From Psychrilyobacter piezotolerans (GTDB taxonomy: Bacteria; Fusobacteriota; Fusobacteriia; Fusobacteriales; Fusobacteriaceae), in the NCBI RefSeq assembly GCF_003391055.1, contig NZ_QUAJ01000016.1, forward strand, positions 1 through 64,000: a stretch of 64,000 nucleotides of DNA. Reading direction: 5' to 3'. The number at the start of each line of letters is the position of its first letter. Within the stretch, counting starts at the first letter, position 1. The notes under the pieces were generated by a model that saw nothing but the letters and a program-made list of their open reading frames with translations, was not told where the DNA came from and did no database searches. Positions 3,362-39,887 of the stretch are shown in pieces. The translations under genes were made by a program, and so were the position numbers.

Positions 3362-3396
3362 AGTTATTCTCCTCATTCAAAGTCTAACTTTCATAG

Positions 3397-3849
3397 TTAT
3401 ATTACTTTGTTTAAATATATATCGGTTATATCATATCCCATTTTCTTATATACTGCTATGTTTTTTTCATTATATCCATATGAATGGATATTAATTTTTT
3501 TTATATCTAATTCATCGGCTTTCTCTTCGATCAACTCGATGAATTTTAACTCATATTCATTTTCCTGGAATTCTTCAAAGATACAGGTATTATTTACAAA
3601 CATTTCATTGTTAAATTTATTCATCCAAACAAATCCTACCTTAACTTCATCTTCATAGGCATTTAACAAGTAATGGTTAGGAGTAGATATCCCTTCATTT
3701 AAAATCTTATCCAAGGCTTCCTTGGATAGTTCCAGGGCTTCTCTTTCCGACCAGTGACCCACCTTTATCTTGTCTTTAGCATAATCAGCTATCATCTTTC
3801 CTTTTACCATGTTAAAGTCTGCTTCTGACATTCTCTCTAATTTTAACAT
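3397..3849 (-). CDS. GNAT-family N-acetyltransferase
   Basis: A 150-residue single-domain protein. The C-terminal half carries the GNAT acetyl-CoA-binding pattern: IKKINIHSYGYNEKNIAVYKKMGY ends in the usual asparagine, alanine/tyrosine and 'KMGY' elements, and VGFVWMNKF supplies the central strand. These enzymes move acetyl groups from acetyl-CoA to amines of small molecules or proteins; the substrate is unknown. It sits between dnaK and the mutarotase-like gene, all minus strand, and could be co-transcribed with the chaperone operon. The length is usual for the family. Confidence 0.78.
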   Translation of the reverse strand: MLKLERMSEADFNMVKGKMIADYAKDKIKVGHWSEREALELSKEALDKILNEGISTPNHYLLNAYEDEVKVGFVWMNKFNNEMFVNNTCIFEEFQENEYELKFIELIEEKADELDIKKINIHSYGYNEKNIAVYKKMGYDITDIYLNKVI

Positions 3850-35467: not shown

Positions 35468-36262
35468 ATGAAAAAAAAGGTATGTATCATATATAATACC
35501 TCTAAAAAAGATGCAATAAAATTTTATGAAGTATCCAAGGAATTCTTTGAAAATTGCGGTATAGAGGTCCAGCCAGAGATAGAAGGATCAGCCTTTGTTG
35601 TGGTAATTGGTGGTGACGGAACCCTCCTAAAGGCCAGCAAGGAAATAGCTGCCCACAATAAATTTGCCGTTGCTGTAAATATGGGAAGTCTTGGATTTCT
35701 TACAGATATAAGGAGGATCGAAGCTCTTCAAGTTTTTGAAGATGTTTTGATGGGAAACTATAAGTTAGAGGAAAGGCATATGCTGGAGGTAGAGGTCGGC
35801 GGAAAAACATATACCGGACTCAATGAGGTGGTTATGGCAAAGGGAGGTATCCTGCAAAAGTTAATCAGGATCAGAGCTTCAGGGGAACACTATATCAATA
35901 CCTACAGGGCAGATGGATTAATTGTTGCTACTCCCACAGGGTCAACAGGCTATTCCCTTTCAGCAGGAGGACCCATCATCAGACCGAATTTAGATGTTCT
36001 TTTAATTACTCCCATTGCCCCGCACAACTTAAGTACCAGACCTATAATAGTAGATGGCAAAGAGGAGATCACATTAAAATTAGAGGAAAGAGAAGGTTCA
36101 GCTTATGTAGCTGTGGATGGAGATGATATTATCGAGATTACTAAAGATGACACCGTTAAAATAAAATATTCAGATAAAAAATTAAAGTTGGTGCTGCCAA
36201 AATCAAGAAACTATTATTCTGTTTTAAGGGAAAAATTAAAGTGGGGAGATAAGATATGTTAA
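35468..36262 (+). CDS. nadK: NAD kinase
   Basis: A 264-residue enzyme that phosphorylates NAD to NADP. The GGDG motif is at 48-51 (VVVIGGDGTLLKASKE), followed by NMGSLGFLTD and the TPTGSTGYSLSAGGP substrate loop. GGGGAGAAAG precedes the ATG. It overlaps recN by 7 bases, a nadK-recN pairing seen in many bacteria. Confidence 0.96.
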   Translation: MKKKVCIIYNTSKKDAIKFYEVSKEFFENCGIEVQPEIEGSAFVVVIGGDGTLLKASKEIAAHNKFAVAVNMGSLGFLTDIRRIEALQVFEDVLMGNYKLEERHMLEVEVGGKTYTGLNEVVMAKGGILQKLIRIRASGEHYINTYRADGLIVATPTGSTGYSLSAGGPIIRPNLDVLLITPIAPHNLSTRPIIVDGKEEITLKLEEREGSAYVAVDGDDIIEITKDDTVKIKYSDKKLKLVLPKSRNYYSVLREKLKWGDKIC

Positions 36263-37917
36263 GGGAACTTCGAATTGAAAATTTAGCAATTATAGATAAA
36301 TTAGAATTAGAATTTCAAGATAAATTAATAGCTCTCACAGGGGAAACAGGAGCAGGAAAGTCTATTATCCTTACAGGTATCAACCTTCTTATCGGCGAAA
36401 AAACCAATATGGAGATGCTCCGGGACGGGGCAGACTATCTTCTGGCTGAAGGTGTATTCGATGCCGATGAAAACCAGGTCCGTGAACTCCATGAGATGGG
36501 AATAGATGTAGAAAACAACGAGATAATTGTCCAAAGAAGGATGGAATCCAATGGCCGGGGAAAAGCCTTTGTAAATGGCAGAAGAGTACCCATGAGCAAC
36601 CTGAGAGAAATCATGGGTACCCTGGTTGATATCGTAGGCCAGCACTCCCACCAGATGCTCCTTCATAGAGGAAATCATATAAAATTAATCGACAGATTTT
36701 TAAATAAAGATGAACATCTTATCAAAGACCAGCTGGGAAGTATTGTCTCCAGCTATGAGGAGATTCACAGACTCCTGATCCAGCTTTCTGAAACAAGAAA
36801 TAATATCAAAGAGAAAAAGGATCTCTACGAATATCAGCTGGCCGAGATTGAAGAAGTCAACTTATCTGAAAATGAAGATGAAGAATTAGAGGATGAGTAT
36901 AAGATCCTTTTTAATGCCGGTAAAATCACTGAAAAACTAAAAAATTCCTATTATAGTATCAGTGAGGGAGAGATAAATGTCACATCTCTACTCCATAATG
37001 TAAAAAAAAATATGGAATCCCTCTCCGGGTATGGTAAAGATTATGAGGCTATCTTTGAAAAAGTAGAAAAAATCTACTATGAAGTTGAAGACCTCACATA
37101 CAATATAGAAAATATTCAGGATAGCATGGATGTGGATGAGTACCGGCTAAATGCTGTAGTGGACAGACTGGATAAGGTAAACAACCTCAAGAAAAAATAT
37201 GGGGAAGATATCCCGGAAATTTTAGGATACCAGGATAAGATTAAAAAGGAATTGGATCTTCTGGATGAAAGTGATTTTGAGGAAAAAAAATTAAATAAAA
37301 AGATGGAAGATCTCCTAAAAAAATATAAAACCGTAGCTGCCGATTTATCTGCTGCCCGTAAGGTCAAAGCTAAGCTGATAGAGGAAAGTCTGACTTCTGA
37401 GCTGATCTATTTAAATATGAAGGATGCCAGGTTTAAAGTGGATTTTAAAGTGGATGAAAAGATCTCCAGATCAGGGATGGATATAGTAGAATTTATGATA
37501 GCTCCCAACCTGGGCCAGGAGATGAAGCCTCTGGCTAAGGTGGTTTCCGGCGGAGAGATGAGCAGGATCATGCTGGCTCTAAAAGTGATATTTTCAGCTG
37601 TGGATAATGTCCCTATACTGGTATTTGACGAGATCGATACCGGGGTAGGGGGAGAAACCGTGAGAAAGATAGCCGATAAACTATATGACATCGGGGAGAA
37701 TGCCCAGATCATATGTATAACCCATTCCCCTGCCATCGCAGCCAAGGCAAGCCAGCAATTTTATATTGAGAAAAAAAATATTCAGGGAAAAACCATAGCC
37801 ACAGTAAAAAACCTAAATCCAGAAGAGAGAATAGATGAGATAGCACGAATGTTAGCAGGAGATCAGGTCAGTATCAGTGTGAAAAATCATGCAAAAGATC
37901 TATTAAAAGGCAATTGA
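36256..37917 (+). CDS. recN: DNA repair protein RecN
   Basis: A 553-residue SMC-like ATPase that acts early in double-strand break repair. Walker A is GETGAGKS at 29-36; the ABC signature is VVSGGEMSRIMLALK and Walker B is ILVFDEIDTGVGGETV. Between them lies a long coiled coil (about 150-380). The length and motif order are those of full-length RecN. Confidence 0.97.
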   Translation: MLRELRIENLAIIDKLELEFQDKLIALTGETGAGKSIILTGINLLIGEKTNMEMLRDGADYLLAEGVFDADENQVRELHEMGIDVENNEIIVQRRMESNGRGKAFVNGRRVPMSNLREIMGTLVDIVGQHSHQMLLHRGNHIKLIDRFLNKDEHLIKDQLGSIVSSYEEIHRLLIQLSETRNNIKEKKDLYEYQLAEIEEVNLSENEDEELEDEYKILFNAGKITEKLKNSYYSISEGEINVTSLLHNVKKNMESLSGYGKDYEAIFEKVEKIYYEVEDLTYNIENIQDSMDVDEYRLNAVVDRLDKVNNLKKKYGEDIPEILGYQDKIKKELDLLDESDFEEKKLNKKMEDLLKKYKTVAADLSAARKVKAKLIEESLTSELIYLNMKDARFKVDFKVDEKISRSGMDIVEFMIAPNLGQEMKPLAKVVSGGEMSRIMLALKVIFSAVDNVPILVFDEIDTGVGGETVRKIADKLYDIGENAQIICITHSPAIAAKASQQFYIEKKNIQGKTIATVKNLNPEERIDEIARMLAGDQVSISVKNHAKDLLKGN

Positions 37918-38074: not shown

Positions 38075-38932
38075 ATGCTTGAGAAAGTTCCAGGGTACAA
38101 AGAATTCGAAAAACACATGAAAGACAGCAGCTTTAGTTACAACAGCTGCGAAGCCTACAAAAAAGATATCGATGATTTCTTTATCTTTATCAGGTATAAA
38201 CCTCTAAATGAAATAATAAAGGAGGACATCTTAAACTTCATAAGAGATCTGAAAAAAGTCTATTCCAACAACAGTATCAACAGAAAAATAATATCTATCC
38301 GGGGATATTTAAAATATTTTTACAAAAATGGTATAATTGATAGTCTGCCCATGGAAAAGATAAAAAATCTACCTCCTGAAAAAAGAACTTTAGAAATATT
38401 GAGTTTAAAGGAGATAGATAAACTGAGGGAGGTTATGGATGACTCCCCAAAAGAATATAGGGATAAGATCATCTTAGATATCCTCTATGATACCGGTATT
38501 TTAATCTCAGAGGTTTTAGATCTCAGGTGTGAAGATCTGATCTCAGAAGATTATAAAGCTATCACTCAGATTAAGGGGACCAAAATAAACAAGATCCCTT
38601 TGGACGACTCTTTAAGTGAACGATTACAGATATTTATAGAAGAGAAAAGAGATGAACTCCGAAATAAAAACACCAAGATATTTTCCAGTGTTTCCAGACA
38701 AAATTATAGAGCCAGGCTGATACAATATGGAAAAAGAGCCGGCTTAGACAGGGAAATATATACCCATATGATCAGAAATTCCGTCCTAAAAAATATTTTA
38801 GACACAGAGGGTGCCCATGTGGTAAAGGAAAGGATGGGGTATTCAACCATTCAAAATACCAGTCTTTACAGCAGCAGAAATACAGGAAAAATCAAGGAAA
38901 AATATATGGAGATAGGAATCGGAGATGAGTAG
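38075..38932 (+). CDS. Xer-like tyrosine recombinase with altered active site
   Basis: A 285-residue protein with the XerC/D layout: an N-terminal SAM-like core-binding domain (about 1-95) and a C-terminal catalytic domain. The nucleophile Tyr265 (TSLYSS), His231 and Arg234 (HMIRN) and Lys167 are present. The first catalytic Arg of the 'TGLRxSE' motif is Leu143 (TGILISEV), and the 'LGH' histidine is Tyr256 (MGYST). It could be a recombinase that needs a partner, or a DNA-binding protein that no longer cuts. It lies between recN and era with no phage genes near. Confidence 0.82.
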   Translation: MLEKVPGYKEFEKHMKDSSFSYNSCEAYKKDIDDFFIFIRYKPLNEIIKEDILNFIRDLKKVYSNNSINRKIISIRGYLKYFYKNGIIDSLPMEKIKNLPPEKRTLEILSLKEIDKLREVMDDSPKEYRDKIILDILYDTGILISEVLDLRCEDLISEDYKAITQIKGTKINKIPLDDSLSERLQIFIEEKRDELRNKNTKIFSSVSRQNYRARLIQYGKRAGLDREIYTHMIRNSVLKNILDTEGAHVVKERMGYSTIQNTSLYSSRNTGKIKEKYMEIGIGDE

Positions 38933-38990: not shown

Positions 38991-39887
38991 ATGAAAGCAG
39001 GATTTATAGCAGTAGTAGGAAGGCCAAATGTAGGAAAATCTACATTGATGAATAAGATAGTAAATGAAAAGGTAGCCATAGTTTCTAACAAAGCCGGGAC
39101 AACCAGAGATTCAATCAAGGGAATATTGACTATCCAGGATACACAATATGTATTCATTGATACTCCGGGAATCCATAAACCTAAACATCTTTTAGGTGAA
39201 CATATGACCAATACAGCCATCAGTGCACTAAAAGAAGTGGAAGCAGTTATTATGGTACTGGACGGGACTCAGGAGATCAGTACAGGAGATCAATTTGTCT
39301 TCGATAAGATTATGAAAGCTCCTAATACTCCTAGAATTGCTATTATCAATAAGATTGACCTTATGAAAGACGAGGAGATCGAGGAAAAAATCGGGGAAAT
39401 CAAAGCAAAATTAGGGAATTTCCACAAGATCGTAACTATGTCAGCTGAATATGCCATCGGTATTCCTAAGTTATTGGAAGCTATCGATCCATTTTTAGAG
39501 GAAGGCATCATGTACTATCCTGAAGATATGTATACCGATATGCCTATGTATAGGATGATCATAGAGATTGTTAGGGAAAAAATATTAACTAGAACCAGAG
39601 ATGAAATCCCTCATTCTATCGCTGTTGAGATCATCAATGTAGAAAGAAGGGAAAACGGTAAGGATAAATATGATATCAATATCTATGTGGAAAGAGATTC
39701 TCAAAAAGGGATAGTTATCGGTAAAAAGGGAGCTCTTTTAAAAGCTGTTGGTACCGATGCCAGAAAAGATATCGAAACTTTGTTGGAGAAAAAAATATAC
39801 TTAAACCTATGGGTTAAAGTTAAGGATAACTGGAGAAAGAAAAAGCCATTCTTAAAGGAAATGGGATATAACTTAGACGAATTATAA
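38991..39887 (+). CDS. era: GTPase Era
   Basis: A 298-residue essential-type GTPase that binds 16S rRNA and helps mature the 30S subunit. The G domain has GRPNVGKST (10-18), a TT switch, DTPGI and NKIDL. The C-terminal third is a KH domain with IVIGKKGALLKAVGTDARKDIE. The length is normal. AAGGAG precedes the ATG. Confidence 0.97.
   Translation: MKAGFIAVVGRPNVGKSTLMNKIVNEKVAIVSNKAGTTRDSIKGILTIQDTQYVFIDTPGIHKPKHLLGEHMTNTAISALKEVEAVIMVLDGTQEISTGDQFVFDKIMKAPNTPRIAIINKIDLMKDEEIEEKIGEIKAKLGNFHKIVTMSAEYAIGIPKLLEAIDPFLEEGIMYYPEDMYTDMPMYRMIIEIVREKILTRTRDEIPHSIAVEIINVERRENGKDKYDINIYVERDSQKGIVIGKKGALLKAVGTDARKDIETLLEKKIYLNLWVKVKDNWRKKKPFLKEMGYNLDEL

What the first reader, a model, noticed from the sequence alone, without database searches (positions are those of the whole stretch)
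38075..38932. Xer-like recombinase with two catalytic residues changed
The first catalytic arginine is Leu143 and the final-box His is Tyr256, while Tyr265, His231, Arg234 and Lys167 remain. It sits in a housekeeping region between recN and era with no phage genes. It may work only with a partner, or may have become a structural DNA-binding protein.
Basis: partly seen in the sequence, partly recalled or inferred. Interest (0 to 1): 0.5.

Follow-up and report, generated by a model that had tools for sequence, protein, structure and literature searches.

The report
Dead XerD after recombinase swap
The gene is a member of the usual chromosome-unlinking enzyme pair whose active site has been dismantled but which is still strictly kept, in a bacterial family that seems to have lost the partner motor FtsK and to have handed the job to a different recombinase sitting beside its own target site at the replication terminus.

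Summary
In detail: window 38075-38932 encodes a 285-aa XerD-like tyrosine recombinase between recN and era, with Arg-I=Leu143 and last-box His=Tyr256. It is not a strain quirk. Yet the gene is under strong purifying selection (omega 0.06, like recN), and its C-terminal tail Y..IGIGD holds three of its four fully invariant residues. The family also lacks FtsK-gamma (1/61 against 37/37 in sister families) and shows classic dif hits barely above control (5/61 against 25/37). A third, canonical tyrosine recombinase is clear in 53/61 family genomes and absent in 37 others. An ATATAA-N6-TTATAT repeat follows it in 36 of 46 testable loci, and GC skew flips across it in 4/4 chromosomes sampled. Best reading: dimer resolution moved to a new single-recombinase/dif module; XerD survives as a non-catalytic DNA-binding partner protein. 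Catalytic death, activity of the new module and the retained role are inferred, not shown.

The parts
38075..38932 (+). xerD-like gene (285 aa) with dismantled catalytic site; the finding itself
38501..38503 (+). codon of Leu143 at the place of catalytic Arg-I
   Evidence: Arg in 0 of 54 family members, 33 of 34 in sister families
38573..38575 (+). codon of Lys167 (hairpin Lys, kept here)
   Evidence: Lys in 24 of 54 family members
38765..38776 (+). codons of His231 to Arg234 (HxxR box, kept here; His in only 8 of 54 family members)
38840..38842 (+). codon of Tyr256 at the place of the last-box His
38867..38869 (+). codon of Tyr265, the presumed nucleophile, kept here; absent in 38 of 54 family members
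38885..38929 (+). C-terminal tail, residues 271-285 (GKIKEKYMEIGIGDE), kept in the family even where the Tyr stretch is gone
   Evidence: (Y277, I282, G283 each 54 of 54; the fourth fully invariant residue is F203)
36256..37917 (+). recN, upstream neighbour; a recN match lies in the fetched flank of 51 of 51 family loci checked
38991..39887 (+). era, downstream neighbour; an era match in 50 of 51 family loci checked (the other is near a contig end) and in 0 of 34 loci of sister families

Best explanation
The gene is the vertically inherited XerD of its lineage turned pseudo-recombinase. In the ancestor of the family (Fusobacteriaceae in the NCBI sense) the FtsK-XerCD-dif route of chromosome dimer resolution was given up: FtsK and dif were lost and XerD lost its catalytic Arg-I. 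A third, canonical tyrosine recombinase (working name XerF) took over at its own dif-like inverted repeat at the replication terminus, as XerS/difSL and XerH/difH do elsewhere, but without FtsK. XerD was not discarded: it keeps the two-domain fold and a C-terminal tail under strict selection. The most likely working mode is a non-catalytic DNA-binding subunit that sits beside XerC (which in this genus keeps Arg, His-Arg, His and Tyr) and controls or completes its assembly through the tail. Shown by computation: conservation, residue losses, co-absence of FtsK and clear dif, presence and terminal position of XerF and its site. Inferred: catalytic death, XerF activity, and the partner role.
For: Orthology: recN match beside the gene in 51 of 51 family loci and 30 of 34 sister-family loci checked. 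Residues: family 0/54 Arg-I, 16/54 Tyr; sister families 33/34 Arg, 31/34 Tyr, 30/34 full RKHRHY. Selection: omega 0.061 (17 of 21 pairs usable) against recN 0.057, XerC 0.053, Era 0.040, XerF 0.026. Tail: Y277, I282, G283 54/54; mean conservation of the tail 0.69 against 0.51 for the whole protein in the family, while in sister families the box III-Tyr stretch reaches 0.83. XerC: Tyr and Arg-II in 40/40 family copies examined; XerC keeps Arg-I in the 15 genomes where XerD keeps Tyr and lacks it in the 21 where XerD lacks Tyr, no mixed case in 36. FtsK-gamma 1/61 against 37/37; FtsK motor match of 139 bits or more in 37/37 sister genomes, in the family only in G002 (a 1639-aa protein). dif pattern: 25/37 sister genomes against 5/61 in the family; reversed-pattern control 1/37 and 2/61. 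In 8 sister chromosomes with dnaA at an end of the contig, dif sits at 0.49-0.55 of its length. XerF: 53/61 clear plus 2 doubtful; in 37 sister genomes only 3 weak matches, which lie on their xerD genes; RKHRHY in 52/53 copies fetched; site core in 36/46 loci against 0 in 111 kb upstream and 3 in 800 kb of other DNA; GC skew changes sign across it in 4/4 chromosomes sampled and about 11 kb beyond it in F. vincentii.
Against: Tyr265, His231, Arg234 and Lys167 remain in the window protein, so residual cleavage is not excluded. No experiment shows that XerF recombines at the site. 10 of 46 loci lack the site core (G055, G044, G054, G021, G041, G002, G038, G037, G039, G034), and in 8 of the 36 with a core the arms extend poorly (at most 2 of the next 5 positions pair). 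The core was read off these same loci. Six family genomes have no XerF match: G015, G025, G056 and G061 are 62-82% complete, but G012 (93%) and G052 (92%) are not; G046 and G047 have only a 39% identical copy. One family genome (G045) has a weak FtsK-gamma match. 24 of 40 family XerC copies examined lost Arg-I and 21 of these also His-II, so an active XerC partner cannot be general. Three Leptotrichia-like genomes that keep FtsK also have damaged XerD residues, so FtsK loss is not required for XerD decay. In one search the first dif pattern hit 7 of 61 family genomes, fewer than its reversed control, and only 9 of 37 sister genomes, so dif rests on the refined pattern.
Confidence: 0.66

Rival explanations
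1. The dead XerD is kept for a recombination-free job at the terminus: it binds XerD half-sites and unloads SMC complexes, as XerD does in Bacillus subtilis.
For: Precedent stated in PMC8242196 and PMC13342612 (passages). Catalytic residues are lost while the tail and overall sequence stay under selection.
Against: No XerD half-site array at the terminus was shown; a half-site-like motif GTCC[GT]ATA is denser around xerF (67 in 292 kb against 35 in 800 kb) but 30 of the 67 lie inside the xerF frame. SMC-ScpAB was not looked for. That the B. subtilis function needs no catalysis is recalled; the primary paper was not held.
Confidence: 0.2
2. XerC and the dead XerD still do half a reaction: XerC makes one strand exchange with XerD as scaffold, for mobile elements or plasmids.
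For: In the window genus XerC keeps R, H, R, H, Y; the C-terminal tail is conserved.
Against: XerC of this genus lacks the hairpin Lys by alignment, and in 24 of 40 family XerC copies examined Arg-I is lost as well. The dif patterns gave no hit in the 8 genomes of the genus.
Confidence: 0.15
3. The gene is a decaying relic without function.
For: Catalytic residues erode step by step; in many genera of the family the nucleophile stretch is gone.
Against: omega 0.06 in the genus; beside recN in 51 of 51 family loci checked; three tail residues invariant in 54 of 54.
Confidence: 0.05
4. It is still an active recombinase in which other residues replace Arg-I and the last-box His.
For: K167, H231, R234 and Y265 are kept in the window protein.
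Against: Replacements at Arg-I differ (K 23, L 15, S 10, Q 6 of 54) and Tyr itself is lost in 38 of 54 orthologues.
Confidence: 0.06

Closest known systems
XerD of the XerCD/dif/FtsK system (TIGR02225; E. coli XerD, PDB 1a0p)
   Same: Same place beside recN as the canonical XerD of sister families, same two domains, best NCBIfam hit; fold search lists XerA, integron integrase, XerD and XerH among the top hits.
   Different: Arg-I and last-box His lost; no FtsK and no clear dif in the own genome.
XerS/difSL (streptococci, lactococci) and XerH/difH (Helicobacter, Campylobacter)
   Same: The third recombinase of the family is a single enzyme of about 330-370 residues next to a dif-like site, as described for XerS and XerH in PMC5357621 (passages), here at the terminus.
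   Different: XerF matches the XerS model only at 87.8 bits against a 267-bit cut-off; XerS and XerH are described as FtsK-dependent but the family seems to have no FtsK; spacer 6 bp against 11 bp in difSL; degenerate XerC and XerD are kept beside it.
Archaeal XerA
   Same: [quoted passage not shown] best NCBIfam model for XerF (126.7 bits).
   Different: Below that model's cut-off of 220 bits; bacterial; the older Xer pair is still there.
B. subtilis XerD as SMC unloader
   Same: A second XerD role, a possible reason to keep a dead XerD (passages).
   Different: There XerD is an intact recombinase (recalled); here no binding sites or SMC link have been shown.

Membership tests
XerD (site-specific tyrosine recombinase) - window protein | Two-domain tyrosine recombinase fold | tested here: met
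   Pfam hits; AF2 model mean pLDDT 83 but pTM 0.59 and low confidence after about residue 250; Foldseek hits XerA, XerD, XerH with probability 1.00, TM 0.41-0.63 in the 50 rows shown
XerD (site-specific tyrosine recombinase) - window protein | Catalytic R-K-H-R-H/W and Tyr nucleophile | tested here: not met
   L-K-H-R-Y-Y
XerD (site-specific tyrosine recombinase) - window protein | NCBIfam TIGR02225 cut-off | tested here: not met
   136.3 against 329.6 bits; the canonical XerD of sister genome G072 also misses it (269.4), so this test is weak
XerD (site-specific tyrosine recombinase) - window protein | Works with FtsK-gamma and a dif site | tested here: not met
   Neither found in the own genome; a divergent dif cannot be excluded
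XerD (site-specific tyrosine recombinase) - window protein | DNA cleavage and strand exchange | not testable with these tools
   needs biochemistry
Single-recombinase Xer module (XerS/XerH-like) - third recombinase | Canonical catalytic residues | tested here: met
   RKHRHY in 52 of 53 copies; the 53rd is cut by a frame break
Single-recombinase Xer module (XerS/XerH-like) - third recombinase | Adjacent dif-like inverted repeat | tested here: met
   core in 36 of 46 loci with at least 250 bp downstream
Single-recombinase Xer module (XerS/XerH-like) - third recombinase | At the replication terminus | tested here: met
   GC skew changes sign across it in 4 of 4 chromosomes sampled, ten 20-kb windows each
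Single-recombinase Xer module (XerS/XerH-like) - third recombinase | FtsK-dependent | tested here: not met
   No FtsK found in the family apart from one 1639-aa FtsK-like protein in G002
Single-recombinase Xer module (XerS/XerH-like) - third recombinase | NCBIfam XerS equivalog (NF003462) | tested here: not met
   87.8 against 267 bits
Single-recombinase Xer module (XerS/XerH-like) - third recombinase | Resolves chromosome dimers | not testable with these tools
   needs genetics

The most novel reading that the evidence does not exclude
A whole bacterial family swapped its chromosome-dimer resolution system for an FtsK-free single recombinase acting at its own terminal site, and kept the old XerC/XerD pair as pseudo-recombinases with a new, recombination-free role (for example terminus organisation or SMC unloading) that depends on the invariant C-terminal tail of XerD.
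Probability: 0.35. Interest if true: 0.86.

Novelty: new variant of a known kind. Interest (0 to 1): 0.7.

Why it matters
[quoted passage not shown] A family that includes Fusobacterium seems to have replaced them, and sister families with the intact system give a natural before-and-after comparison. It offers a dead XerD as a tool to ask what XerD does besides recombination, and a single recombinase that would have to work without FtsK, which makes the need for FtsK control directly testable.

Tried and rejected
Strain-specific mutation: rejected, fixed in the genus and changed throughout the family rows examined. Mobile-element integrase: rejected; the place beside recN is conserved and phage hits are only 24-28% identical in the eight rows shown of 30 records. 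Classic dif in the family: two patterns; one search hit 7 of 61 family and 9 of 37 sister genomes (reversed control higher in the family); one search hit 5 of 61 and 25 of 37 (reversed control 2 and 1). G039, G041 and G045 may hold vestiges; the four hits of G047 look like plasmid pdif sites (recalled) and may be contamination. Phage carriers of the new site: 0 exact 22-mers and 6 exact 18-mers without matching outer arms in viral contigs, so no support. The broken site in G055 is followed by unknown genes; PHROGs and Pfam gave nothing significant. Motif GTCC[GT]ATA as half-site array: inconclusive. DnaA as origin marker: not found in the family genomes tried, so GC skew was used. DnaA and FtsK queries from sister families: F. 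vincentii is not in the 40 rows shown (of 61 and 661 records), while the window's Era finds it first; supportive, not decisive. A family XerD-like query did not show F. vincentii in the 5 rows shown of 34; the gene was then found beside era by position.

Literature: ten searches. None of the titles and abstract starts listed deals with Xer, dif or FtsK of this family; most listed papers were not opened. One opened paper (PMC10269558, one passage) names RecN and 'tyrosine recombinase XerD' with EnvC and NAD kinase in genomic islands of Fusobacterium nucleatum subspecies, evidently this locus; the passage says nothing of catalytic residues. PMC7203096 held no DnaA, oriC or FtsK mention in the part held.

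Rows dropped: of 61 family genomes seven have no XerD-like row (G008, G015, G016, G017, G018, G034 not found or not fetched; G061 only a 92-aa piece), and of 37 sister genomes three (G073, G075, G077, only pieces of the gene found). XerC was examined in 40 of 61 family and 14 of 37 sister genomes (those 14 are all RKHRHY). The recN/era check covers 51 of the 54 family rows. In one search seven of 53 loci with under 250 bp downstream were set aside. XerF was fetched for 53 of 55 matching genomes (not G045, G058). In one search genera g4 and g7 were labelled with the Tyr-less group although g4 has no XerD-like row and g7 no XerC row.

Full report
WHAT IS THERE. The window lies in an unnamed Fusobacteriota genome (G000, 3.36 Mb, 86 contigs; window = contig C16, 1-64000). 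The nearest named relatives found are Psychrilyobacter MAGs (93% and 69% protein identity). ORF 38075-38932 codes for a 285-aa tyrosine recombinase whose best curated model is XerD.

ORTHOLOGUES. A search of 98 Fusobacteriota genomes found a match in 97. I took the recN-linked gene from most of these and aligned 54 from the window's family (f1, 61 genomes) and 34 from other families (f2-f6, 37 genomes). A recN match lies in the fetched flank of 51 of 51 family loci checked and of 30 of 34 others; an era match in 50 of 51 and 0 of 34. In other families 30 of 34 have full RKHRHY; the exceptions are G067 (cut by a contig end), G068, G074 and G080. In f1, 0 of 54 keep Arg-I (K 23, L 15, S 10, Q 6), 8 of 54 keep His-II, and 16 of 54 keep Tyr. 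In the other 38 the stretch that carries the Tyr is lost or replaced, but the protein ends in the same kind of tail, about KI(R/K)E.Y..IGIGD(D/E). Y277, I282, G283 and F203 are identical in 54 of 54. The tail is as conserved as in the sister proteins (0.69 and 0.69) while the box III-Tyr stretch has relaxed (0.55 against 0.83) and the whole protein stands at 0.51 against 0.68.

SELECTION. Within the window genus the gene evolves with omega 0.061 (median of 17 usable pairs of 21, 7 sequences), like recN 0.057, XerC 0.053, Era 0.040 and XerF 0.026 (own NG86 script). It is therefore not a decaying pseudogene; L143 and Y256 are fixed in 7 of 7, window included.

XERC. The own genome's XerC-like gene lies at G000:C1:19212-20099 (-) beside trmFO- and cmk-like genes (gene names by eye). 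It keeps Arg, His, Arg, His, Tyr but not the hairpin Lys by alignment. Of 40 family copies examined Tyr and Arg-II are kept in 40 and Arg-I in 16; 24 lack Arg-I and 21 of these also His-II. The 14 sister copies examined are all RKHRHY. XerC keeps Arg-I in the 15 genomes where XerD keeps Tyr and lacks it in the 21 where XerD lacks Tyr; none of 36 is mixed. On an XerF tree this split needs only two changes, so it may reflect very few events and should not be read as 36 independent cases.

FTSK AND DIF. FtsK-gamma (PF09397) matches 37 of 37 genomes of f2-f6 and 1 of 61 of f1 (G045, 5e-7). The FtsK motor (PF01580) scores 139 bits or more in 37 of 37; in f1 only G002 does (138.6 bits, 1639-aa protein) and other f1 hits are at most 36.5 bits (there mostly 26 first-look candidates per genome were scored). 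In the own genome all 50 candidates were scored, best 22 bits. A dif pattern built from first hits matches 25 of 37 genomes of f2-f6 and 5 of 61 of f1; its reversed control matches 1 of 37 and 2 of 61. In eight sister chromosomes with dnaA at an end of the contig the hit lies at 0.49-0.55 of its length, which supports that it is dif; a ninth, G062, has its only hit on another contig.

THIRD RECOMBINASE. P0004 (G000:C18:72065-73135, +) has a match at E<=1e-20 in 55 of 61 f1 genomes, one each; 53 are clear (49% identity or more) and two doubtful (G046, G047, 39%, far apart on the tree). In f2-f6 only three weak matches occur (G083, G091, G092), which lie on their xerD genes. Of 53 copies fetched, 52 have RKHRHY and one is cut by a frame break. 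It passes no cut-off of the NCBIfam models listed (XerA-type 126.7/220, XerD 121.7/329.6, XerS 87.8/267). XerF is a working name only.

THE NEW SITE. Downstream of the stop codon lies an inverted repeat, ATATAA-N6-TTATAT, often with longer arms such as ACTACATATAA-TTAACA-TTATATGTAGT. The core is within 850 bp in 36 of 46 loci with enough sequence; in 28 of the 36 at least 3 of the next 5 arm positions pair, in 8 fewer. The same core occurs 0 times in 111 kb upstream and 3 times in 800 kb of other DNA of four family genomes. The core was read off these loci, so this is a description with a background control, not an independent test. In the own genome the site is AATACTGAATATAA-TAACTG-TTATATTCATTATT at C18:73203-73236, 64 bases after the stop. 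Arms around a 6-bp spacer are the layout of dif. In G055 the right arm is missing and the following sequence differs from that of a sister species: perhaps an inserted element, whose genes are unknown.

TERMINUS. Sampled GC skew around XerF is positive at -60 and -30 kb and negative at +30 and +60 kb in G042, G026, G028 and G016 (4 of 4; the weakest values are -0.005 in G028 and -0.023 in G026 at +30 kb, and +0.027 in G016 at -30 kb); the antipode shows the opposite switch in 3 of 4 (not G026). In the complete Fusobacterium vincentii SB055 record (filed as a plasmid, 2,108,235 bp) XerF is at 1,133,635-1,134,645 with the site AATACTGCATATAA-TTAACA-TTATATGCAGTATT about 0.4 kb beyond, and skew changes from + to - about 11 kb further on. 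Its recN-era gap holds a 256-aa XerD-like protein without the Tyr stretch, ending in IGIGDK.

STRUCTURE. An AF2 model from ten sequences has mean pLDDT 83 but pTM 0.59; residues after about 250, with Y256, Y265 and the tail, are of low confidence. Foldseek returns XerA, integron integrase, XerD, XerH and Cre with probability 1.00 and TM 0.41-0.63 in the 50 rows shown of 245. It supports the fold, not a mechanism.

MECHANISM. Shown: the losses, the selection, the co-absence of FtsK and clear dif, and the presence, site and terminal position of XerF. Inferred: that Leu143 and Tyr256 abolish strand exchange (importance of Arg-I recalled), that XerF resolves dimers, and that XerD is kept for binding DNA and a partner. 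The tail is the argument for a partner: in E. coli XerCD the C-terminal end of each subunit docks in its neighbour and controls its activity (recalled). The partner is most simply XerC in this genus. A terminus role with SMC, known for XerD of B. subtilis (PMC8242196 and PMC13342612, passages), is the main rival.

A SECOND CASE. In the Leptotrichia-like genus g21 (name recalled; 13 genomes) six have a damaged XerD (G068, G074, G080 by residues; G073, G075, G077 found only in pieces). In one search none of these has a clear dif hit (G075 has one poor 2-mismatch hit), while six of the seven with intact XerD do; G074 has a 3-mismatch hit. They keep FtsK and lack XerF. XerD decay and dif loss thus seem to go together a second time, but without FtsK loss.

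PAPERS. Passages only were seen of PMC5357621, PMC3025954, PMC8242196, PMC13342612, PMC12322038, PMC8138268 and PMC10269558; the first two do not contain 'Fusobacteri' in the main text. PMC10269558 mentions this locus (EnvC, NAD kinase, RecN, XerD) in Fusobacterium nucleatum as part of genomic islands, with no word on catalytic residues in the passage. The primary paper on XerD and SMC was not held. That the swap is unpublished is only as sure as the ten searches listed under Tried and rejected.

Noticed in passing
family f1, e.g. own genome G000; G026, G028, G042: No recognisable DnaA (PF00308) in 19 of 19 family genomes searched (only 37-46-bit hits in G059 and G006, transposase-helper-like by size and copy number), while all 12 other-family genomes searched have it at 5e-75 to 2.5e-47. 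The family may start replication without standard DnaA.
   Followed up: partly
G000:C18:72065-73135 and 73203-73236 (L223): Third tyrosine recombinase with adjacent dif-like inverted repeat, proposed single-recombinase dimer resolution module.
   Followed up: yes
L226 about 3396-3500 (G055): The dif-like site next to the third recombinase is split; the right arm is missing and unknown genes follow, possibly an element inserted at the site.
   Followed up: partly
Leptotrichia-like genus g21: G068, G074, G080, G073, G075, G077: Damaged or fragmentary XerD and no clear dif although FtsK is kept and the third recombinase is absent.
   Followed up: partly
around xerF loci L223-L275: Motif GTCC[GT]ATA, like the left arm of the sister-family dif, is about five times denser than in 800 kb of other DNA (67 in 292 kb against 35), though 30 of 67 lie inside the xerF frame.
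   Followed up: partly
L244, L246, L249 and similar, about 0-200 bp after the xerF stop: Further short inverted repeats such as AATAACNGTTATT and AATTATTATTTCGAATAATT flank the central site and may be accessory binding sites (seen by eye).
   Followed up: no
NZ_CP084075.1: A 2.1-Mb Fusobacterium vincentii record is filed as a plasmid although it carries recN, era and a terminus-like skew switch.
   Followed up: partly
G047 contigs C114, C161, C195: Four dif-like sites with varying 6-bp spacers resembling plasmid pdif modules, perhaps contamination of that assembly (pdif recalled).
   Followed up: no
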